Assembly (NCBI GenBank): GCA_027604505.1
Contig: JADIIX010000157.1
Location: forward strand, 1-45,967
Length of the DNA stretch: 45,967 nt
Reading direction: 5' to 3'
Source: Gonapodya sp. JEL0774
Taxonomy: Eukaryota; Monoblepharomycota; Monoblepharidomycetes; Monoblepharidales; Gonapodyaceae
Made by a program: the position numbers and the translations under genes. Shown piece by piece: positions 15,207-44,840 of this stretch. Below the pieces are notes generated by a model that was given only the letters and a program-made list of their open reading frames with translations, did not search any database and was not told the origin of the DNA. Position 1 is the first letter of the stretch. Each line of letters opens with the position of its first letter.

Positions 15207-18200
15207 ATGGATTCCAGAGAACGACGGCCGGAGGAAAACACATACACCCAGAGAAGGCCGCCCTCTGTGGTGACGTATGTTGCTCCGCCGCCGATAGGGC
15301 AACCGGTTATGGTACCACCTCTACCGACGCCACCAGTGCTACCCCACTTCTTTTCGCCCTCCAGCGGTACACGGACGGTCACATCACAGTCATGGAGCTC
15401 GCCTTCCACTAGTCACGCAAGACCACTACACATGCCACACACGTATCCATCAGTGTATTCCACCTCCTCGTCGCACATCGCGCGCTCCCGAAGGAAACCG
15501 CCTACCCCATTGAAGGCGCATTTTGCCTTCACATCAATTCCACCAGTGCCGCAGGTTGTCTTACCCAAGCATCACACCTCCACCTTTATGAAGGGCTCTG
15601 CTGCCGCCAGTACAGGTGGACTGGGAACGCACCTCCTTGTTTCAAATCGAGACAGAGACAGGGCAACAGGGAACAAGGTTGGGACTCTTGTCGGTTCGTC
15701 GGCAGAATTTGGAGGGCTGATAAATGCCGGCGATGCAGACGGCGAGGTGGGTTCCTCTGGTCAGCGAGCATGAACCTCGGATAGCGCTTACTCGAACTGG
15801 AACTGGAGGTGCTCCCAGCAAACGTGATCTCGCTAGGGATGCACGTTGGCATTGTGTTTGCGATTGAGAAACTTCTAGCACCCATTCCGGATGTTGTTGG
15901 GGGCAACTAAATCGCAACAGATGAGCAATCTCAGCTGAATGGCAGAAATATCAGGCACGAACTTCGGAGCATGTCCATTCTTGCCAACTATTCGCTTGGG
16001 GACCTCACGAGTCCTTTTCCTGTCCCCATATATGTCTCGCAGTTCACCGTCGTTATTCACCCCGGTTCTCGCCTTCTCCGAGTCGGTCGGGCTCAAGATG
16101 GTATACCAAAACTTGTCCACAATGTTGTCGCTCGCAGAATTGACACGATCGGCCTGCTGCGATCTTTGCGGCTAAAATTTGGGACACTCTCCGGGAGCCT
16201 TCCTAACTTTTCCATCGAGGAATTGGCGAAGATGGTAGGTTGGAGCGAAAGCTGGGAGGATGCTGGGGATGAGTGGTATGCAGATGGGGTGACGGCAGGA
16301 TGGAACGACGGAATGAGTGATTCCAAGGGTGGAGTGGTGGTTGAAGGAAACAACGGCTATGGAGAATCTGGCTATGCTGCTGGGAACAAGAAGTGGAAAG
16401 AAAGCGACGTACAATATGGCTCTATGGACGTCGATGGACCCACTGAAAATGAAGGAGAACCTAATTCACCAACCTCAAATGATAATCCGAAATTTCCAAC
16501 GCTCTCCATCCATCACCCTACCTATCCTGCCACCCTCGCTGACCTTCATAACCATCTTCGCAATCGTGTGCGTGATCTGCGTGCCTCTGGTGTACAAGGT
16601 GCCCAAGAGAAAGTCTTGGCAGCAAACGCACGAGCAGAGACGGAATTCACAAGTATACCCGAGCTCAGTGATCGAAGAGCTGTTGCATGGACACGTTGGG
16701 GGGTCGGTGTGAGGGCCGATGGGTCTGTAGTTGGAGACGGTGGAGCTAGGGATCTGTCTACTCCAACCAAAGTGGGGGAGAGAAAGGATCGAGGGCCACC
16801 ACCAGATGTTGTAGTGGGGATCTCCGCTCTCAATCTCCCTCAATTCTCCCTCCCTCATGATCGTGATGCCGCATTTCGGGCCCTCCATGCGGCGCTCATT
16901 TCAGAAGAGCCCGAATCCCGCCTGGAATTGGTTCCGCCACTGTATGTCCTTCGCCGACCGATTCGTCATGGTGCACTCAATGCAACTTCATATGCGAGCC
17001 TTGCGCACCTCACTGGCGACATCGAGGCTATCTGGCGGAATGCCGTCACCGAGGTTGGAGTCTCGAGGAGAGATTTGAAGCGTTACAACCTGGTACTCGT
17101 GATACCAGACAAGTGCGACAAACTTTATGTGCAAACTATGGTACGCGTGGCCATGGACTTGTGTTTCCCTGCGGTGTTGTGTGTTCAGGAGAGTGCTGCT
17201 GCTTGTTTTGGTGCCGGTTTCGGGAATGGTACCTGCGTGGTCGACGTTGGAGCTGAGAAGAGCTCAGTGAGCTGCGTAGATGAAGGGATTGTGGTACAGA
17301 GCACAAGGTGAGTTGTTCACGAAGGTGGTCTGGTTGATCATTGTTGGATAAACGTGGAATCTAGCGCCCACTTCCTTTGCTTCCTTACAGAATCAACCTT
17401 AAGTACGGAGCCGATGACGTTACCTGGTATCTTTCTCACCTTCTATGGGCTTCTCACTTTCCTCATCGCTCTTTCGATCCATACCGGGTGCTCTCAGACT
17501 TCCTTCATGTCGCTGAACACGTCAAGGAGACAAACGTGAATCTGGACTTCGGAGAGCTAATCTCAACTCGCAATATGACTGTTGAAGTAAGGTCACCGGG
17601 ATGTGACGCGAGAGTGTGGACTGTCCGTTGGTGGGATGAGGGTATCTTGGCAGCAATGGTGAGAGTCTATCCACGTTTCTTTGCGGGAGAGTTTTCGACT
17701 CAGGACATTTCTTTTCAGATTTTGTTTTATCCTTCTATTATCAATCACTACCAAAAGCTGCGCGGGCTTTTGTATCCGAGATACTTCGCTGGCGGATCCT
17801 TCCCGTTGAAGGTTACGAACGATGAGGATGATGCAGTTGTCAAACTATCCGTTTTGCCGAACTACCCACCACCTTCGGTTGAACTTCTCAGTGTCGATGA
17901 GTGGGTTGCAGGTGTTGGTTCGCAGGCTCTTGGGGGTTCACGCTCTCTGAAGGAGATCGTTGAACAAGTCCGAGACTTAGCGCGCACTGCAAAGCGGAGA
18001 AAGATCAGTGAAACTCGTGAACTCGGCGTAGTAGAGTCCAAGACGGAAGATAACCGACTGGAAGGTGTGATGGCAACTTCGGAAGCGTCACACGCCGATT
18101 TGGCCACAGGGGACGAGCTGAGACCCGAGCGTACATCCTCCTCTAGCAACTCTGAAAGCCACAGATCAGCGATGCAAACCAAACCGCTTGATCTGCTTGT

Positions 18201-19241
18201 TGCGGCTCAAGAGCCTCTAGATGTCTCAATTGCACGGAGTCTCCTTCTGTACCATCGAGCCATGGCTCAATCACTGGCGGCTGGTGATCCCGCATACATC
18301 CCTGACCCAAAGCTATCCGCTCAAGTACAGATGCCCAACGCAGAACCATTTCCTGGGCAACCGCCTACTCCCCTGCATCCTTTCGCGGATGAACTTCTCC
18401 GTCGCATTGCGTCAACGGTGTTGCTTGCAGGGGATGGTGTGCAGACATCCCGCCTTTCCGAAACTTTACAAGATCGTGTGCAGCAACGCCTCAACGAAAT
18501 GATTGCAGTGCACTTGCCGCACTTATACTGGAGCGTACCACTGGTGAACCGAGATGAATGGGAGCTAGAGGAGGCTAAGGCGCGGGCGCCTGCTGAGAAT
18601 GGACAACAAAGCCTCACTTCCGAATTTCGACCTGGTGTTGTGACTGGCGTAGAAAAATCGATTGAAAATGTGACCACGTCTCTTGCCTCCAGTACCTCAA
18701 ACGGCCTTTCCAATGCGCCAAAATCAGTAAGTGCGCCAGGGGCGACACATGCACGTGGGACTGAAAGGGGTCGTGGCCGCGGCTCACATTTGAAGGGATC
18801 CAGAGGGACTTCGTCCAGTGCTAACTCATCGAAAGCGGCTGGGAACGGTGGCTACAGTTCAGTTGCAAAACCATCCGTTATTTTAGGTCCCCCGAAAGTA
18901 CTTGTTATATACCCTCCACCAAGAGACATTCCTCCAGGACATCTCGTATGGAAAGGGGCATCGGTATTGGCAAGATTAGAAATCGCGAGAGAGATGTGGA
19001 TTGGTCGAAGTGAATTTGAGAACGCCGGAATAGCGAGAGTTTGTCAGGTGGGAGTCCGGACTATCATGAAGTTAGAACAGAATTGAGAAACGCTAAGTTG
19101 TGTGTTTTGTTGGTTCCTTTGCGGAATTGTAGGCAAAGTGGGGTAAGTTCAAAGACAGAGATTTCCGATGGGAAACTAAGTACCAATCCCCCGCTTTTGA
19201 CCTATTGCGCCATATCAGGAATAACCTGGGATCCCTCGTGA
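15207..19241 (+). CDS. ARP8: Actin-related protein 8 (INO80 chromatin-remodelling complex)
   Basis: The product is a nuclear actin-fold subunit of the INO80 remodeller, which with actin and Arp4 binds the HSA region and extranucleosomal DNA. Six exons are proposed: 15207-15746, 16043-17307, 17391-17658, 17719-19047, 19133-19142 and 19219-19241, about 1144 residues. Arp8-specific signatures are VVIHPGSRLLRVGRAQD then NVVARR (residues ~182-215), LTGDIEAIWRNAV, VIPDKCDKLYVQTMVRV, VQESAAACFGAG, CVVDVGAEKSSVSCVDEGI, NLKYGADDVTWYL, LFYPSI, and near the end VLVIYPPPRDIPPGHLVWKG, ASVLARLEIAREMWI. The protein is longer than human Arp8 (about 620) because of a Pro/Ser-rich N-terminal region and two low-complexity insertions, one Arg/Gly-rich. 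Least certain are exon 1 with its 296-base intron, and the C-terminus, which needs a 10-base microexon to read AKWGITWDPS. Confidence 0.9.
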
Positions 19242-28962: not shown

Positions 28963-30598
28963 ATGTCTATTCCATTGCTCACCACCAAAAACCCATACCT
29001 TCTGATTACTAGAAGCGGCTTCGATCCATCAATCCATGTCCCGCCGGCTCTTCGTCTCCGAAGAGCACGATGGTGGATTGACCCTGGCAACACAAAGAAT
29101 TCTCGCTTCGCAGGAAAAGGGAATGAGGAGGAAGATATTGAAGGCGCACCTGTCGAAATATTAGTGACTGTGGCGGTGCATGGTAACGAGCAGGTTGGTT
29201 CCATGTACATTTGAAGCACGATCGTCGGCGATCGGGGTCCATCAGCCAGCATCACCCCGTCAAAATATGATTGAAAACATTTGTAATCATTTGCTTTCAT
29301 TTTAGTGTGGTCTTCGTGCCATAAACCACTTGCTCTCCTCTCAATTCTTCCCATCCTCTGCCAACATCAGGCACTTCCAACCCGCAGAACTGGCAGCCGA
29401 CTTTGATCTCCTGGCGTCTGTCGATGGTGATGAGACCGCTTTCCTCGCTATTGCTTCACGGACCTATTCCGTTTTGGAATCGCCCGGCCTATCTGACTGG
29501 CCGTTCGCGTGGGACTCTCTGACTGTTGTGCTCGGCAATCCTGCAGCGGTCCTTGCCAAAAAGCGATTCGTGGACACAAATTTAAACCGCACTTTCACGG
29601 CAGATATCATTGCGGATGCCGTGAAGAAGGAAGGCCTGCACTTGGCGAGCCCTAAAGCGTTTCGCTTGATCGGAGTGCCTGACCCATTGTCCACCAAATC
29701 TTATTCTCAACCTCCAATCCCTGTGGCTGAGCGCTCACTAGTCCCTCCCATCGCATACCTTATCTCCCACTCCACGTCTCTCCTTGACATCCACTCTACT
29801 AGCTCCCCGACTGCCGCGTTCTCAATTCCACACAACCACCAACTGTCACGCGCCATGTGTGCCGGATTGCCCGTGCCGTTTGTAGTAGAAGGAATGCTCG
29901 ATGTACAGGAAGGGACAACTGGGTGCTGGGCGAGGGAGGTGGGGATGGCGAAAGCCGGGGGGGTGGAATGTGGACAGCATGACGCGGAGGAGGTATGTTT
30001 CGAAACCTGACAGTTTGCGATTAAATGGGGAGCCAATGTGCAGAATCAGTTTTTGGAGACATACGAATCACAGTTTGATATTTGCCCGAAGGGAGTTGCG
30101 CGCGGAGCCCCAGAGGATCCAATCGGAAACCCAGGGTCATTGTTCCGTAGAACTTGGCTGAGAGGCTGTTATTGACAACAGAGGACATTAGATAAAACGT
30201 GTCAAGAACCTAACCACAGGATTCAGACGTCACTGTTTTATCTCACAGTCTCTTCTTTCTCCGCTTCCTATCAGTCATTCCAGAAAGCTGTAGAAATCCT
30301 CACCCACTTGCTTTTCATCGACTCCCCAGTATCTCCATCAACCACAAACACGCCACCCCGTGTTCTCCACATTTCATCATCGGTTTTCTGCCGTTCCAAT
30401 TTCCGCTACGTCAAATCTCCACCACCACCTGCATTCGCTCACATTGCAGAGGGGGAAATCGTAGCAGAGGATGAGCGAGGAAAGATTCTCTGTGATGTCA
30501 AAGGTGGAGCGTACTTGGTAATGCCTGTGGCAGAACACTTAGTACACGTGGGAGAAGAAGCGTGGGTGTGGGGCGTCCAGAAAAAGGACGTCAACTGA
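28963..30598 (+). CDS. Succinylglutamate desuccinylase/aspartoacylase-family zinc hydrolase
   Basis: The product is a metal-dependent deacylase of the AstE/AspA group (peptidase M14-like fold), which cleaves N-acyl amino acids. Three exons, 28963-29193, 29306-29992 and 30275-30598, join in phase 0 to 413 residues. Zinc and catalytic marks are HGNE at residues 73-76 (His and Glu zinc ligands), directly followed across intron 1 by CGLRAINHLL;  then DTNLNRTF (substrate-binding Asn-Arg); LLDIHSTSS with the third zinc ligand His; and ECGQH with the general-base Glu. The C-terminal domain (AHIAEGEIVAEDERGKILCD) is the beta domain seen in the family. The donor of intron 1 is GTTGGT, weaker than usual but conserved motifs flank it exactly. 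An AATAAA at 30700 may be the polyadenylation signal. The precise substrate cannot be stated. Confidence 0.87.
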
Positions 30599-36370: not shown

Positions 36371-39300
36371 TCAGGGGAGAACCATAACGCAGTCTTGGTA
36401 GTTGAGAGCCAACAGGACATCTAGGATCTGATCATTTAGCACGTGATTGCCTGACACAATAATTCTTGTTTCGTTACTCGGAACTGAATTGTCTTCATCG
36501 AGAACTCTCAGCATAACTGGTTTAGTCGCTGAGGCGACCAAACTCGGTGAACGCGACATCCTATTCCCTGTCAGAGGAGACAGCAAGGGAGTTCGCCATC
36601 TGCGAACGAGCTCAACCTTTTCATTTCATGAGCTCACCTGCGGCTGCGAAGTTCAGAGCTGATTTCGTAACCTTGGGTGGTGGTGGTAGATTCGATGAAA
36701 GAAGTTCATTGTCGATTGTTTCCTTTACGTCGCTGACCCACGGAAGCTTGGCACCATCTAAATGGCGAATCACAACCTTCAGCGATAAAGCGGACCCCAA
36801 TGTTGCAACATGCTCTTCAATCAATTCGCGTCCCACAACATCCTTCTCGGTCTCGAAAATGGCGGTGAGCCACAGCTTGAAGGCCGGCGTGCCATTCTCA
36901 AGACGGGGACCATTCCTTGTGTAATACTAGTAATGAGCAAGTAATGATGGTATCAGAAAGTCAAACGCAGCGAGTAATGAAAACGACAAGACGTCTTGAA
37001 TTGAGAATACCCACGTCAATGAGTTGCATCATAGGAGTTATACCTATTCCCGAGGACACCATTCCGACGTTTCCAAAGCACAGGGATGGATGCGATAAGT
37101 TGGCCATCACAGGGTTCCGACCATCTTCACCGCCTCTCATGAACTTCACACGAATGTTGCTACCGGCCTCGGTTCGATCTAGTAAGGGGGTGAACTCTCC
37201 TTTGGTACGTATACGTACAATAAACGGTATTGATCCTTTGCAAAGACTTTTAATTGGAGTGTACGGCCGCTCGATTAGCTTCCCTTCGGCAGAAGAAAGC
37301 TGGATAGAAATGTGATCGCCAGGTGCAAATGTCACCTCAGCGCTAGGATTTGGCAGTGCAAGGGAGCATTGATAGACTTTTGATGATGCTGACGGCGAGC
37401 TTAGGACCTTCTTTTCCTTCAGTGGCAGAAGTCGGTACGCGTGATTCAGAAGCTGTAAGAGCGGCACGTCACTTGTAGTAAACGAAGGTGTCCTGGCAAC
37501 ACGTCCAGTTTCTTCTGCGAAAGACTTCGTTTTTACCACAGAAAGTCTTGCAATATCCGCTCCGGACAGATTGCCGGCTGGATCGACCTTTGCAAAAGCT
37601 TTGATCCTGCCACAGGCCAGGCCCTTAAGCCTGAAGTACTCGATGGTGAGAACAGGAAATGCCGGAGACAACATGAGAAACTCACTGAAACTCCGCGACA
37701 CGCGAGTGATTGTGCCGGCGTCCTGCTCCTGGTAACTCGTCACCGGTGAAGTATGGAGTACAATCAGTTCCAACCACTGCTTGTAGGATGCGCAGACCTC
37801 CGGGATGGTGGTTCATCCAGTCGTTACTCGCTAAATCATATACAACGTCCTTAATGACGATGTATTTCTTGCCTTTCGTCGATAATCTAACAAATCAGTC
37901 CGGACTCCGGTGAAGATTTGCTCATGCATACCCACCCTGCGCGATTTGGTCGTTGAAGTCCTTCCAAGTCATTTCCACGAGTTTTGCTATAACGGGATCT
38001 ACTGCGTTCTTGATCTTGTGCTTGGTCAGCTCGTCGTCATTAACTGCACTTTGAGTTCTCCCCAAACGCTCGTAGACCTTTCGCCGATGACCGAACATCA
38101 TCATGAAAACAGGTACAGAAAGCACGGATATTAAGTATAAAGCTTGTGCAGCCGCAACTTGCGCTGAGGTGGTCGAGATTGAATGTGTGAGCAAATCTGT
38201 GACTCCCAGGTAACCGTTCGTGAGTGCTGTGAAATAGGCAAGGTAACCAGCAACTCTAGAACGCAAAAGAAAAGATGGATTGAGTTTAATGAGAGCTTGA
38301 GGGAGCGGAGCAACACGCACATGTGAAGAGTTCGAATGTACGCTTGAAATCTTGCCAATAACTGGCCCAGTCGCAGAATTCGCACGTAGTGTACAATGAC
38401 GTATCCGGAAAGTACCGACCACGTAGTAACTCCTAATAGAATCAACCCAATTATAGGGTGAATCGACAGTTGGCCGTTTGCGATCTTCCCAAAGATGGCC
38501 AGCTTGAAGCACGGTATCAAATCGTTACCAAAATGAGTCCGCAAACAATCCATCGCGAACGTACCACACCCGATATAAATACTTCAGTATAAATAAAAGC
38601 GCACACTTGCTCGTGAAGTTCTAGCCACTTTTAAAGGATCAGGATGGTTGGAGGCCCAATCCTCAGGCAAACGTGCCGGTGCCTACATCACTCACGTTCG
38701 AATACGTGGTTGAGTTTCTGGCAACGAAAATGGCGAATGGCATCAGGACTCCAAAACACAGTAGCATCAGAGCTGTTTTGCAGATTGGCGTAATCGTCGG
38801 TACCTGATATCTTGAGCTTTAGCGACAATCACTCACATCCGTGAATAATTTGCAGCACTGGGAGCGGATCCATAGTATCGTTCGTTGACACATAAGCGCT
38901 GAAGAAATCTATTTCCATTTTCGCCTTGTTGGGACCGTGGTAAGCGATACTTCTGTGTGATAGCGACCAAGCATACCTATCACAGTAAGGGATGGGATAA
39001 TCAACCAGTGCATCATACACTCAAGATAGTGATCAGTACTTACGTGACCGTAGTGATTCCTGGAGAAATATCGTTGTCGTTTGGATCCCCTGTCACTAAC
39101 TTTCGGGAAAATCCAACGACCTTGAGCCACGTCGTGTCCCCCTTCTTAGAAGTAAGGTCAACGAAATTCTCGACACTGCTGGAACCACCGAGATCAATGT
39201 CCTGGGAAGGAACTGCAAACGCCGTTGACTTGCGATCACTGATTCCACCAACTCCATTGTTCAAATCTGGTTCGTAAGCATAGATATCTTGAGAAGGCAT

Positions 39301-40891
39301 GCCGCTACCAATTCCAAACGCGAACCATCCTAAGAAATTTACAACTCAGTCAAAGTGTTAACTCGATAAAACAGACACCGACTCGCCTGTTGTCGCTCCA
39401 TATACCTCGAAGTCAATGTACCCGGCGGCCTCATGTATCTGCCATCGCAACATAATGTAACTTCCTAGCCTGACTGATTTCCAATCACCATCCGTTTCAA
39501 CAGTCAAGGTGGCGTCCAAGGCCGAGCTCAGACGTCGCACGCGAGAAGTTGCGTCACCAACGACAGTCACATTATTGGCCGAGTTCAAAGTCGCGCCCCG
39601 CTCCAAAAGCTTCTGATAAGCCGAAGTAAAATCTTGGTAGAATAAGCTGTTGTTTGCTGCATATTGTAATGATATTTCACGATAAATCGGGTCTTGCCAA
39701 AGCGCGTAGTCCGAAACAAGCATCATTAACGTGTTATCAGAGTTATTGTACTGAACTTTGGAGTTTGGATTAACCACTGCGGTCCAATTACTATTGGAGC
39801 TCACAAGCAACGTAAAGAACTCGTTTGTGAACCTAGAGAAGGTCGGGTGCTCTGAAGTGGCGAACTCCACTCCCTTTGACGATGGACTCACCTTAGCGGA
39901 TTGTGTGTCCATGGACTGAAGAAAGCGAAAGCGAAGACAAATTCATAGGAGATCACCTGCATCGACTGAGGGACAACTTACCCAATGTAACCACTTCAGA
40001 TGCTTATGTGTGTCAGTGCATTCATAATACCCGAAAACAAACTGGGAGCAGCATTTACCTTCGATCGTAATGACACCGACCCAGTGCGTGACCACCGCCA
40101 ATGACGGCCACAACCTCACGATCGTTCAATCCCATACGAGCAAAAGTCTTCCGAATTTGAGTCGCATTGTTCGCACCCGATGGTAATCGACCAGCATTCA
40201 TCGACGAGTTGTATTCTCCGGGACTTGGACGGAGGGAGAAAATTGGCACAAGCCACCCAGACGTAGTTCTTACATAGCTCAACGACATACTTGTAGTCGA
40301 TCCTTCCGCAGCGAAATGGAACTACGGGTCCACCACTTGGTTATCAAGGGTGCGGTCGCAGATGGGTGGTGTGGACGCAGCATTCGTAGTGCTAGAATCC
40401 ACCATACCTTTCATATACCGCAACCGTCCCAGCAAAAGCCCACAAATCGGCGTAACCAATTGATGGATAGGACTCCTTTATGAGTTCCAATGCGTCAATC
40501 GAGTTTTGGAGAGATACATGACCTCCGCTAGGGGGAACCAATTTCAGAGTACCCCGAGCTCCACCGGTACCGTCAACAATACTGTACGTTCCAGCGTCAG
40601 CCCTAATTGTATCATGAGTGATGGGGTTAGTATGTTCCAACTACGGTCTTGCGAACAGACATCGTGAGGCAATCCTCACGCCAGTCAAATCAACACTCAC
40701 CATGCAAGACGTACGAGTAGCGGACCCCATCCAGCGGCCACCATCCCTGCCAGACTGTTCCGTAACTCCATCCATTCTTGAGCTGACAGACCGCATATGG
40801 ACGCGCCATCCGTAAGAGTAGGTATCAAGATGACAGCTGTAAGCAAAGTTGCGATGAGAGCAATATCCCAACGGGAGTGATGCATTGTCAT
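36371..40891 (-). CDS. Peroxidase-DOMON-cytochrome b561-cytochrome b5-reductase fusion
   Basis: Seventeen exons from the ATG at 40891 to the TGA at 36371 give 1142 residues, phase kept at every junction. Order: signal peptide (residues 1-29); class I haem peroxidase (~30-292) with [30 protein letters not shown] (proximal His189), SGYIGPW (Trp205), [13 protein letters not shown] (Asp252); DOMON (~315-480) with [11 protein letters not shown] and YHGPNKA; cytochrome b561 helices (~485-650) with [13 protein letters not shown]524, LSIH555PIIG, RTLH600IVAG; cytochrome b5 (~695-775) with HHPGG (His736) and RRHNH; FAD/NAD reductase (~780-1142) with [17 protein letters not shown] and a C-terminal NAD lobe ending YQDCVMVLP. 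It would sit in the plasma or an internal membrane and pass electrons from cytosolic NAD(P)H outward. Odd points: the distal catalytic His of the peroxidase is Ala65, and the first b561 His is Lys492. Exons of 12 and 24 bases and one GC-AG intron are needed. The exon boundary near 38892 is the least certain. Confidence 0.85.
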
Positions 40892-41181: not shown

Positions 41182-42783
41182 ATGAAAGTCGCTGAAGCCA
41201 CCTCAAGCCCTCCTGCTGCTAATATGATTGGCACCAGGGATGGGATGGACGTCGATCTCACAACAAATGAAACGATGATGAGACCTCGTCCACGGGCCAT
41301 GCCTGCGCTCTCAATCGACGTTACAAACGCAGTAGCACAAGCAAAGGCTCGGAATGCGCTACAGAAGGCGTTGGAGGACAATCGGTCACCAACAACCATC
41401 AATACCCTCATCAAGCAACTGCAACAAACAAGCGCACCAGCCACAAAACTTTCGTCCCTCTCTGTGCTTTCAGGCATCCTCAAGCGTAAATTTGATCCCA
41501 CCAAGTACGAGATAAACACTAGGGACCCACTGCGCTCATTGGAGTCGGTTGCAGACGCACTTCAGTGTCTTGCACCTGAGATAACCGATAATGAAATCGC
41601 AAAGGCACTTGTCGAATGCTTGCCAAATGAACTAAGGGCAAAGTATGACAAGGGTAGCATGCCTATAAGCCACTACATTGACAGGCCTGCAAGACCAGCA
41701 TCGTTGGACGATATGATACACTGGGTCATGGCACATTGCTACAACCCAGCAATAGAGCACTACTTCCAGAATGCCAAGGTGCACGGAAGTTGGCCATCAG
41801 ACAAACAAGGCAATATTGTACCAACACCAGATGTGCTTGAGGACCTCATCCACTGGCACAGGGCGATGCTCAAGTATTGGACTCCGCTTTACAATAAGAC
41901 AGCCCCCAGAGAAGCTGTTCTAAACCATGCGGCGATCATTTCGCGCGCGCCACAACACCAACAGTGGCACCTTCGACCGCTTCGCGAACGGCGACGTGCA
42001 CCACGTGGACGGGACTCCTCCCAGAGAGTCTCACTCAGCCGCATGGCTCCGCCCTCTGCTCGACGGGTGCTGGTCCCACGAGTCTGGCGTCGTCAGGGAG
42101 CTTTGGAGGCACTTCGTGCTGTTCGCCAGCTGCGCCTCCATCTCGAACCCCTCCAAGATCCCCGACTCGCAAATTGGTCAAGTCGCAGTTTTTGAGGCCA
42201 AGGGATTCAATCGGCAGGAGGCCGACGAACTGGAGGATGCGGACAAGTTCCTGTACGCGCAGGCGCTGAGTCTCCCAAGAACCATTCGCGCATAGATGAC
42301 CATCGGTTCGTCGTCCACACAATCCAACTCTTCCGCTCGGCCCTCACCGTCCACCACCTTTTCGAGGCCGGCCCCATCAAGGGCGGCAAGTTCCCAGTGG
42401 CAAGGTTCATGGACTTCCAGCTTGATCTCCCCACGGCGAGGAAGCCCGCTGTCATCAAATCCCCAACGATATCCTATGATGAGGACATTGCCGTTGTGAT
42501 GGCCGGGCATTGGAAAGGGAGGATCTCCTTCATGTCCTTCTCGAGGAAGCTGGCGCAGTCCTCGAGGACGTCAAGCGGAGAAAGTTTCATAAAGGCCCCT
42601 GACCCACGCTACTATCAAAAGGAGTATCCAGGAGCTGGATACCAAGCTGACGCAGGTCTGTCTCGACTTCCAGTTAGCAGCATTTCTCAACATCCAGGTG
42701 TGAGCGGCAGAGAACAAGGACGACGCACGTTCTGCTCAGGCTGGTATCCCGCAGAGAATGTTTACTTTCGAAGTCAGGTGTGA
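41182..42783 (+). pseudogene. Broken or intron-split unknown open frame, transposon-like setting
   Basis: Coding-like sequence runs through in one direction but changes frame twice. Frame A covers 41182 to about 41945 (MKVAEATSSPPAANMIGTRD ... ALVECLPNELRAKYDKG ... DDMIHWVMAHCYNPAIEHYF). Frame B covers about 41945-42290 (ARHNTNSGTFDRFANGDVHH ... SAAWLRPLLDGCWSHESGVV ... GFNRQEADELEDADKF). Frame A returns from 42289 (RIDDHRFVVHTIQLFRSALT ... FPVARFMDFQLDLPTARKP ... IAVVMAGHWKGRISFMSFSR). The first change sits at a CGCGCGCG run (41941-41948), a classic slippage site. The first part recalls retroelement gag-like helical proteins (SLPxEL-type motif LPNELRAKY), but no zinc knuckle, protease or reverse transcriptase follows. 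Either it is a decayed gene or introns I could not place. Family unknown. Confidence 0.4.
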
Positions 42784-43291: not shown

Positions 43292-44840
43292 CTACAGCTT
43301 TAATACGGTCTTTTGAGATGCCTTCCATCCATCCAATACGTTGTTTTTGGGATTGTCCAGCCTGGCCTGGGACGCTTCGTACAGCCTTGGAATACCGGTA
43401 CTCTTGAAGTCTGCGCCTTCCATCACCATTGACGCCACACCCTTTGCGGATAAAAAGATCTGCGGCATGCCATGGCCGGTGAACCCGGCAAGCATAAACT
43501 GGTTTTGTCTCCCGGGAACGACTCCAACATGCGGTGTTGAGTCCGTGGAGTAACCCATAACTGAGACACACCAACGTTAACAACGATCTCACAACGGTAG
43601 CCAAGATAGATTGACTTACTTCCAGTCCACACCTTGTCCGTGTACGCGCCGGTATCTTCCCAACCCTTGAAGACTTTTTGCATGTACCCATCAAAGTAAT
43701 GCTTCGCCTCCTCAATCAAATTATCGTCATTGACATTGCCATACCACTTCTCCAGGTCATGGTAGTACTCTGACCTCGCACCTCCCACAACAATGCTGCC
43801 GTCCAGTCTAGGGATGAGGTATTCATACTTACTTTCCGACCATCGAATGATGTAAGAGTACGGCAGCAACGGAGCGGGAGTCTTGCCAGGGTGGATATGA
43901 CTGCATATTCCCCGCACAGGAACAATCTTTTCTGAGAACTCAGGCAGGATCGACGAAGTGTAGCCGTTGGTGGCGTACACAATGTTCTTAGCGCGCACAG
44001 TTCCCCGCGGCGTTGTGAGAGTGAGGAATCCATCTGCATCGGGCTTTTCTGTGACATTGGTCACCGGTGTGTGTGTTTGTAGGTTCACTCCAGCGGCGAG
44101 TGCCTTTTCGAGTAGCCCGATAACAAGCTTGTATGGCCACAGGTGACCGGCTGTGTATGAGAGACAACCTTTGGCTCCCTTGACGCCTGACAGCTGGTTC
44201 TGGTCAGCAATCTAAATTGACGTGATTTAGACAGGCTAACTTACTTGCTCCGCCTCTGCACCTTTTGCAAAATACACATCGCCCATCAATTTGACGCCAT
44301 GTTTCCTCAGCAACTCAACTCCAGACCTCATCTGCTCGCAGATGGACTCGGTCATCAATGCGTCGACAGCACGTGTATACACCAAGTCACAGTCAAATCC
44401 CTCAGCTTCAATAGCCTTCTTCACAGCCGCGAGGTTCTCGGCCTCGAAGTTTGCGCACTCGCCGGCAACCTCAACGCCATGGGTCAGGGCAAGAGTTGAA
44501 GGCCGGTTGTAAGGGTCAGGTTTCAAATGGCCACCTACATCAGCTCGAGATTAGCATTGGATCGATATGAAATATGCAAAGAAGTACCATTTCGGCCAGT
44601 AGCCCCAGAGCAAGCCTCTCTCGCCTCAAGAATCACAATATTCGGTGGCGGGTTCCCCTTTGCCTTGCAGATGTTGAAGATGTGGTAGACCGTCGAGACG
44701 CCTGCATATCCGGCACCAATGACGGCAATGTCGACTTGTGAGGGGATGTCAGAGGTAGACCGGTGATTGTCGAGTGGATGCGGACATGACCTCCAGAAAG
44801 AGGTCGTGGAGTTCGGAACCGGGAGCGGGGAGGGCGGCAT
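43292..44840 (-). CDS. FAD-dependent oxidoreductase, DAO family
   Basis: The product is a 467-residue flavoprotein of the D-amino-acid oxidase/glycine oxidase (DAO) superfamily, which oxidises amines or amino acids using FAD. Four exons, 44588-44840, 44245-44534, 43620-44211 and 43292-43560, join in phase. The start at 44840 gives MPPSPLPVPNSTTSFWRS, the leader typical of fungal members; ATG 44915 upstream is possible. Signatures: VDIAVIGAGYAGVSTVYHI (dinucleotide-binding GxGxxG), ILEAREACSGATGRNGGHLK (flavin contact; GATGRNGG), VRAKNIVYATNGYTS, YEYLIPRLDGSIVVGGARSE, and near the C-terminus VWTGIMGYSTDSTPHVG with GFTGHGMPQIFLSAKGVA (second FAD contact). No signal peptide and no peroxisomal tripeptide (ends VLKL), so cytosolic location is inferred. 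The substrate is not known. Confidence 0.88.

What the first reader, a model, noticed from the sequence alone, without database searches (positions are those of the whole stretch)
36371..40891. One-protein electron relay: peroxidase, DOMON, cytochrome b561, cytochrome b5 and NAD(P)H reductase fused
A single spliced frame carries five redox modules in an order that makes physical sense. The FAD/NAD reductase and b5 would be cytosolic, the b561 core would cross the membrane, and DOMON plus a secreted-type peroxidase would be outside. DOMON-b561 fusions and b5-reductase fusions are each known; I know of no described protein joining them to a class I peroxidase domain. It could supply an extracellular or luminal peroxidase haem with electrons from cytosolic NAD(P)H, for peroxide detoxification, metal reduction or oxidative attack.
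Basis: partly seen in the sequence, partly recalled or inferred. Interest (0 to 1): 0.9.

Follow-up and report, generated by a model that had tools for sequence, protein, structure and literature searches.

The report
Peroxidase haem wired through the membrane
An aquatic fungus carries a gene predicted to make one long membrane protein that would pass electrons from inside the cell to a peroxidase-like haem outside, and in this copy alanine stands where such enzymes usually have their catalytic histidine.

Summary
On the minus strand, 40891..36371, 17 exons join in one open frame (1,144 aa in my model). In order they encode a signal-like N-terminus, class I peroxidase, DOMON, b561-like core, cytochrome b5 and a b5-reductase-like FAD/NAD module. 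The genome is Gonapodya sp. JEL0774 (Monoblepharomycota). Two other database proteins share the architecture: one from G. prolifera, one a paralogue (contig C79). A divergent, poorly modelled third locus (C117) has the same order. The protein searches were truncated and word-based, so absence elsewhere is unproven. Of 16 window introns, 14 match C79 in position and phase, so the fusion is no artefact of this model.

The distal catalytic His is Ala here, Val in the G. prolifera orthologue and Gln in C117, but His in C79 and its G. prolifera partner. Distal Arg and proximal His, Trp and Asp remain. The distal Asn is His in the Ala/Val pair only. All 80 prokaryotic KatG loci checked keep the distal His.

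Best reading: a predicted trans-membrane NAD(P)H-to-haem relay in paralogues with differing distal sites; fast ordinary peroxide reduction by this copy is doubtful. No RNA, biochemistry or usable full-length structure supports the mechanism.

The parts
36371..40891 (-). whole predicted gene, 17 exons, stop codon at 36373-36371; 1,144 aa with intron 13 at 37936/37872
40808..40891 (-). signal-peptide-like N-terminus, hydrophobic stretch residues 10-28
   Evidence: hydropathy; coordinates
39586..40792 (-). class I peroxidase domain (about residues 34-293, exons 1-7)
   Evidence: Pfam PF00141; T. cruzi ascorbate peroxidase 7opt E 3.9e-52
40599..40601 (-). Ala65 codon (GCT) at the distal catalytic His site, first full codon after intron 1
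40518..40520 (-). His92 at the position of the conserved distal Asn
40088..40090 (-). proximal haem-ligand His189
39909..39911 (-). Trp205, aligned with the proximal Trp of class I peroxidases
38886..39522 (-). DOMON domain (about residues 315-485); Met370 and His468 are the candidate haem ligands
   Evidence: Pfam PF03351; invariant residues in A1
38087..38873 (-). b561-like membrane core (about residues 490-665); His500, His532, His563 and His608 are the candidate ligands of two haems
   Evidence: sub-threshold PF03188, invariant His, hydropathy
37624..37984 (-). cytochrome b5 domain (about residues 700-780), HPGG from His738, second His771
   Evidence: Pfam PF00173, solved b5 matches
36374..37416 (-). 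b5-reductase-like FAD/NAD module (about residues 850-1144), RPYTP at 899-903, SGNH from 1118
   Evidence: Pfam PF00970, NADH-cytochrome b5 reductase 2eix E 7.7e-20 for the four-member profile

Best explanation
This gene is predicted to splice into a single 1,144-residue membrane protein that would carry electrons from cytosolic NAD(P)H through FAD, cytochrome b5, a two-haem b561-like core and a DOMON haem to a class I peroxidase-like haem outside the cell, and in this copy alanine stands at the catalytic distal histidine site. Shown by sequence: the module order, the expected haem-ligand residues of each module, the FAD motif, Ala at the distal site together with His at the neighbouring conserved Asn site, and the same architecture in two Gonapodya species. 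Inferred: splicing in vivo, haem and FAD loading, topology, direction of electron flow and the final acceptor. I commit to a division of labour: the His-bearing pair (C79, P0002) would act as wired, cytochrome-c-peroxidase-like enzymes that reduce outside peroxide with cytosolic NAD(P)H, while the Ala/Val pair (this gene, P0007) would be fed by the same wire but activate peroxide slowly, or by a surrogate such as His92, and may mainly run another haem chemistry (oxygen, metal or slow peroxide reduction).
For: One frame over 17 exons. Same modules in P0002 and P0003; same order at C117. 14 of 16 introns shared with C79. Invariant among window, P0002 and P0003 (and in P0001 where its model holds the residue): DOMON Met/His, four b561 His, two b5 His, FAD motif residues. 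b561 His spacing 32/31/45 against 34/33/36 in HYP1, a DOMON-b561 protein shown to pass electrons across the plasma membrane (PMC10784544, passages). Reductase matches NADH-cytochrome b5 reductases. Peroxidase matches class I and keeps Arg, proximal His, Trp and Asp; nonsynonymous divergence of the peroxidase (pN 0.32) is not above that of the other modules. Distal His changed in window, P0007 and C117 but kept in the 10 other aligned domains, in three further class I loci of this genome and in 80 of 80 prokaryotic KatG loci.
Against: No transcript, protein or activity data. Cytochrom_B561 is below its Pfam cut-off (14.5 of 23 bits) and only four b561-region helices pass or approach the usual pattern, one being under my hydropathy threshold. 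The CGPP NAD motif is not conserved and NAD_binding_1 is found in only 2 of 4 rows of A1, not in this protein. Glycosylation sequons fall on both sides. The full-length fold was unusable (pLDDT 41), so haem distances are untested. In my C117 model the DOMON His is not found and two in-frame stops remain.
Confidence: 0.6

Rival explanations
1. The reductase-b5-b561-DOMON part is an outward metal or oxygen reductase, and the distal-His-less peroxidase domain is only a haem-binding, sensing or docking module.
For: Ala, Val or Gln replaces the catalytic His in three members; a DOMON-b561 protein, HYP1, reduces ferric and cupric substrates (PMC10784544, abstract and passages).
Against: Proximal His, Asp, Trp and distal Arg are kept, window and P0007 stay 77% identical over 233 aa, and the sister pair keeps the full catalytic set.
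Confidence: 0.27
2. Two neighbouring genes, or a mis-assembled gene model, were joined by eye.
For: No RNA evidence; the deposited model differs (992 aa, exons 3-6 and 17 missing), and an ab initio chain gave 20 exons.
Against: Same fusion on another contig and in another species; exons 7 and 9 each span a module junction without an intron at it; 14 of 16 introns shared with C79.
Confidence: 0.03
3. The window copy is decaying: the peroxidase part is a relic on its way to a pseudogene.
For: Loss of the distal His; two of three loci in this genome lack it.
Against: Open frame over 17 exons; peroxidase pN (0.32) lower than DOMON, b561 and FAD/NAD; the His is also missing in the G. prolifera orthologue, which has otherwise stayed 77% identical.
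Confidence: 0.07
4. Electrons flow inwards: the outer haem oxidises an outside donor and the reductase end is a cytosolic acceptor site.
For: The module order alone does not fix direction.
Against: The C-terminal module matches NADH-oxidising b5 reductases, and HYP1 passes electrons outwards from cytosolic ascorbate (PMC10784544, passages).
Confidence: 0.03

Closest known systems
Cytochrome c peroxidase and trypanosomatid ascorbate peroxidase (class I / hybrid A)
   Same: Best solved matches of the peroxidase domain (7opt, then CcP); proximal His, Asp and Trp and distal Arg kept. In CcP electrons enter through the proximal Trp (PMC4232752, passage).
   Different: Those are separate enzymes that meet their donor in solution and have the distal His; here the donor chain is fused and the His is Ala.
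CYBDOM proteins (DOMON-b561, e.g. Arabidopsis HYP1)
   Same: DOMON then b561 core, Met/His and four His candidate ligands with similar spacing.
   Different: HYP1 uses cytosolic ascorbate and has no peroxidase, b5 or reductase attached in the passages read.
NADH-cytochrome b5 reductase and b5-reductase fusions (CYB5R4, nitrate reductase)
   Same: FAD module and NAD lobe align (2eix, 7rom, 6mv1, 1cnf), beside a b5 domain.
   Different: Soluble in the matched structures (recalled for the fusions), CGPP instead of SGNH, no membrane or outer haems.
DUOX and DOMON-carrying ferric reductases
   Same: By logic: one protein joining a cytosolic NAD(P)H/FAD module, a membrane haem core and an outer peroxidase-like or DOMON domain (PMC3591440, passages).
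   Different: Built on the ferric reductase domain, not b561; the passages list peroxidase-like and DOMON domains in different models, not together.
Fungal Hybrid B heme peroxidases
   Same: Fungal peroxidases fused to other domains; G. prolifera genes are mentioned in that clade (PMC4232752, passage).
   Different: Their tails are WSC or other sugar-binding domains and their proximal residues are class III-like (PMC5571214 and PMC4232752, passages); DOMON and b561 do not occur in either Hybrid B paper searched.

Membership tests
Class I heme peroxidase (PF00141) | homology over the domain | tested here: met
   108.6 bits against cut-off 27; 7opt E 3.9e-52
Class I heme peroxidase (PF00141) | proximal His with Asp and Trp, distal Arg | tested here: met
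   His189, Trp205, Asp252, Arg61; present in all five family members
Class I heme peroxidase (PF00141) | catalytic distal His | tested here: not met
   Ala65; the only other stop-free in-frame GT/GC-AG splice over this interval uses a poor GC donor and removes the LAW motif. Hence a homologue, not filed as a working peroxidase.
Hybrid B heme peroxidase | WSC or other carbohydrate-binding tail | tested here: not met
   no such Pfam family among the five listed up to E 1
Hybrid B heme peroxidase | class III-like proximal residues | tested here: not met
   Trp at the proximal position as in class I; that class III has Phe there is recalled
CYBDOM | DOMON directly followed by a b561 core | tested here: met
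   order; b561 profile covered 1-132 of 137 but below cut-off
CYBDOM | four haem-ligand His in the core, Met/His in DOMON | tested here: met
   invariant in A1; spacing compared with HYP1. Haem binding itself not testable.
Cytochrome b561 (PF03188) | profile score over the curated cut-off | tested here: not met
   14.5 bits against 23; best E among four rows of A1 0.036
Cytochrome b5 | HPGG and a second His ligand | tested here: met
   His738 and His771; Pfam 34.3 bits against 23.7
NADH-cytochrome b5 reductase family | FAD-binding module with RxYTP motif | tested here: met
   RPYTP 899-903; FAD_binding_6 40.3 bits against 21.1
NADH-cytochrome b5 reductase family | NAD lobe ending in CGPP | tested here: not met
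   lobe aligns but the motif reads SGNH; CG remains in C117. That CGPP is the family motif is recalled and seen in the aligned 2eix.
DUOX / NOX | ferric reductase membrane core | tested here: not met
   no such Pfam match up to E 1

The most novel reading that the evidence does not exclude
Gonapodya has plugged an extracellular class I peroxidase haem into cytosolic NAD(P)H through one polypeptide and then diversified its active site: one copy keeps the distal His, one has moved the catalytic His to the old Asn position (Ala/Val65 with His92), and one carries Gln, so the same wire drives peroxide reduction, a surrogate-His peroxidase and an altered, possibly peroxide-oxidising haem. These would be natural versions of classic laboratory mutants.
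Probability: 0.2. Interest if true: 0.9.

Novelty: new variant of a known kind. Interest (0 to 1): 0.72.

Why it matters
If true, a peroxidase need not wait for a soluble donor: reducing power from the cytosol would be wired across the membrane to one outer haem. I found no paper describing this combination in the searches (open-licence library only). The paralogues also offer a natural test of what the distal histidine does when electron supply is built in, a question so far asked with laboratory mutants.

Tried and rejected
Rejected: mis-splicing of intron 1 as the cause of the missing His. Of the GT/GC-AG pairs over this interval (introns of 35 nt or more) only two keep the frame without a stop: the canonical one gives RLAW-A-DAG; the other uses a poor GC donor, loses LAW and inserts an unrelated stretch. 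A TACTAAC sequence lies about 30 nt before the canonical acceptor.

Rejected: the right flank as a high-copy repeat (the DNA of 41150-43500 matches only itself in this genome; its two long ORFs have no Pfam match).

Led nowhere: the AlphaFold model of full-length P0003, whose deposited gene model is itself flawed, gave pLDDT 41. The P0007 model (76.5) is below 50 at residues 29-36, next to the distal loop, so the geometry of His92 could not be judged. A prokaryotic control with CcP/APx-like patterns found no relative. The KatG control kept the best 80 loci of at least 591; 75 read His by one motif and the other 5 read His by eye. Its search patterns held the distal Asn, so it says nothing about that position. 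Sequons did not settle topology. P0013, a fragment matching 22% of its query, was left out of the 13-domain alignment. One search was a stray pattern search of no meaning.

Limits: protein searches scored only the 7,986 and 7,999 candidates that shared most words, so absence outside Gonapodya is not proven. No DNA of G. prolifera was available, so whether P0007 continues into the other modules is unknown.
Full report
Where it is. The window is C157:1-45967 of an assembly of 25,010,664 bases in 381 contigs. A deposited protein on a contig of the same length is named HDU93_002149, Gonapodya sp. JEL0774, class Monoblepharidomycetes, phylum Monoblepharomycota.

Gene model. Hand splicing gives 17 exons, 40891..36371, one frame, 1,150 aa, 15 GT-AG introns and one GC-AG intron. 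Homology-guided splicing moves the intron 13 boundaries and removes six residues, in line with the deposited protein; I use 1,144 aa. That run also split exon 15, which I did not adopt. An ab initio chain kept one gene but 20 exons and was trained on this gene's own splice sites. The deposited model is 992 aa; it replaces exons 3-6, lacks part of DOMON and lacks the last exon. Exon 7 holds the end of the peroxidase and the start of DOMON, and exon 9 the end of DOMON and the first b561 His; exon 13 holds the last b561 helix, the linker and the first residues before the Pfam b5 match.

Modules. Pfam gives peroxidase, DOMON, Cyt-b5 and FAD_binding_6 over cut-off and Cytochrom_B561 at 14.5 bits against 23. 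The b561 call rests on that nearly full-length sub-threshold match, on four histidines invariant in A1, on hydrophobic stretches at 501-519, 535-553, 566-584 and 642-660 (the helix around His608 stayed under my threshold) and on His spacing of 32/31/45 against 34/33/36 in HYP1, whose H211/H278 and H245/H314 pairs are modelled as haem ligands (PMC10784544, passages). DOMON Met370 and His468 match the M90/H174 pair of HYP1 in order, and in distance to the first b561 histidine (32 against 37). The reductase profile matches NADH-cytochrome b5 reductases through the NAD lobe (2eix E 7.7e-20), with SGNH where 2eix has CGPP. NAD_binding_1 is listed for 2 of 4 rows of A1, best E 0.0014, and not for this protein.

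Relatives. One search returned 6 proteins at E up to 1e-3 from 7,986 scored candidates: this gene (P0001), P0002 of G. prolifera, P0003 of this genome, and three proteins sharing only the peroxidase domain. A profile search with the C-terminal part returned the same three fusions and nothing else from 7,999 scored. A search with the P0002 peroxidase domain returned 7 proteins: P0007, a partial G. prolifera peroxidase, and six others. In this genome P0002 gives 28 matches on five contigs: C79, C157 and C117 match more than the peroxidase domain, while C5 and C54 match it alone. C117 shows the same module order at lower identity, but its model is ragged, holds two in-frame stops in badly modelled stretches, and the DOMON His is not found in it, so I do not claim it is intact. 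Intron positions: 14 of 16 window introns are shared with C79 and 0 of 16 with C117 (the C79 model was guided by a profile that included the window protein).

The altered active site. In an alignment of 13 peroxidase domains (five family members and eight others; P0013 left out) the distal His is kept in 10 and is Ala in the window, Val in P0007 and Gln in C117. Distal Arg is kept in 13 of 13. The distal Asn is kept in 9, is His in the window and P0007, and Thr in P0002 and C79 (the Asn of C117 depends on an alternative exon boundary). In the alignment to the solved T. cruzi enzyme the His of P0007 again faces that Asn. The Gln codon of C117 is read directly in the DNA. Three further class I loci of this genome (C38, C5, C54) read His, and so do 80 of 80 prokaryotic KatG-type loci. 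No other plausible splice restores a His at this place. Window and P0007 are 77% identical over 233 aa. The tree joins the window with P0007 (97/97), P0002 with C79 (100/99), these four (100/99), and C117 with them less firmly (87/86). So the His was lost before the two Gonapodya lines split, and most simply a second time in C117.

What the change may mean. [quoted passage not shown] The members studied at protein level were said to have a catalytic distal His, and the same survey set sequences without the essential residues aside (PMC4232752, passages), so such a family would not have shown in its main tree. [quoted passage not shown] I saw the titles, not those papers; that Asn-70 corresponds to the Asn position here is recalled. 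Making the CcP pocket apolar (Arg48, Trp51 and His52 to Ala) raises hydroxylation 34-fold, while H52Q gave the lowest rate in the range quoted for mutants not designed for apolar substrates (PMC3733812, passages). The Ala/Val plus His92 pair therefore resembles an engineered rescue, but it is one evolutionary event seen in two orthologues and its geometry is untested.

Selection. Window against C79: synonymous sites are saturated (pS 0.79 overall); pN is 0.38 overall, 0.32 peroxidase, 0.35 DOMON, 0.44 b561, 0.55 linker, 0.23 b5 and 0.38 FAD/NAD. The peroxidase is not the loosest module. This compares paralogues and cannot date a relaxation.

Structure. The P0007 model (pLDDT 76.5) matches CcP (best Foldseek E 1.2e-18), as expected from sequence. 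The full-length model was poor. No haem distance is claimed.

Literature. Searches for the combination and for Gonapodya with peroxidase listed no paper describing peroxidase, DOMON, b561, b5 and reductase in one protein; I saw listings and abstract starts, and passages of eight papers. Only open-licence papers are held, and the 2007 DOMON survey of Iyer et al. was seen only as a reference. The two Hybrid B papers do not mention DOMON, b561 or Gonapodya; the 2014 survey mentions Gonapodya prolifera once, among Hybrid B genes.

Verdict. A real, old, multi-member gene fusion. The relay mechanism is plausible but inferred. The role of this copy as a peroxidase is in doubt because of its distal site, which is also the most testable point.

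Noticed in passing
L021 (G000:C117:4500-12500, minus strand): A third, divergent locus with peroxidase, DOMON, b561-like, b5 and FAD modules in the same order, Gln at the distal His site and CG kept in the last reductase motif; no protein of it appeared in the homologue lists.
   Followed up: partly
36371-40891: The deposited protein HDU93_002149 (992 aa) is a different gene model: exons 3-6, part of DOMON and the last exon are missing or replaced.
   Followed up: yes
39330-39386: Intron 7 is GC-AG (donor GCGAGT), the only non-GT intron of the model.
   Followed up: partly
L022 (G000:C79:49800-57000): The deposited paralogue P0003 lacks the signal-like N-terminus and the proximal-Trp part of the peroxidase, both of which the DNA encodes by homology-guided splicing.
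   Followed up: yes
41182-42783: Two long open frames beside the gene without any Pfam match; the DNA is single-copy in this genome.
   Followed up: partly
15911-19086: Two long frames with partial actin-family matches (31.8 bits over and 21.6 bits under the cut-off of 27), perhaps an actin-related gene split by introns.
   Followed up: no
43426-44211 minus; 29306-30007 plus: Frames matching FAD-dependent oxidoreductase (DAO, 73.2 bits) and aspartoacylase-like catalytic domain (34.1 bits).
   Followed up: no
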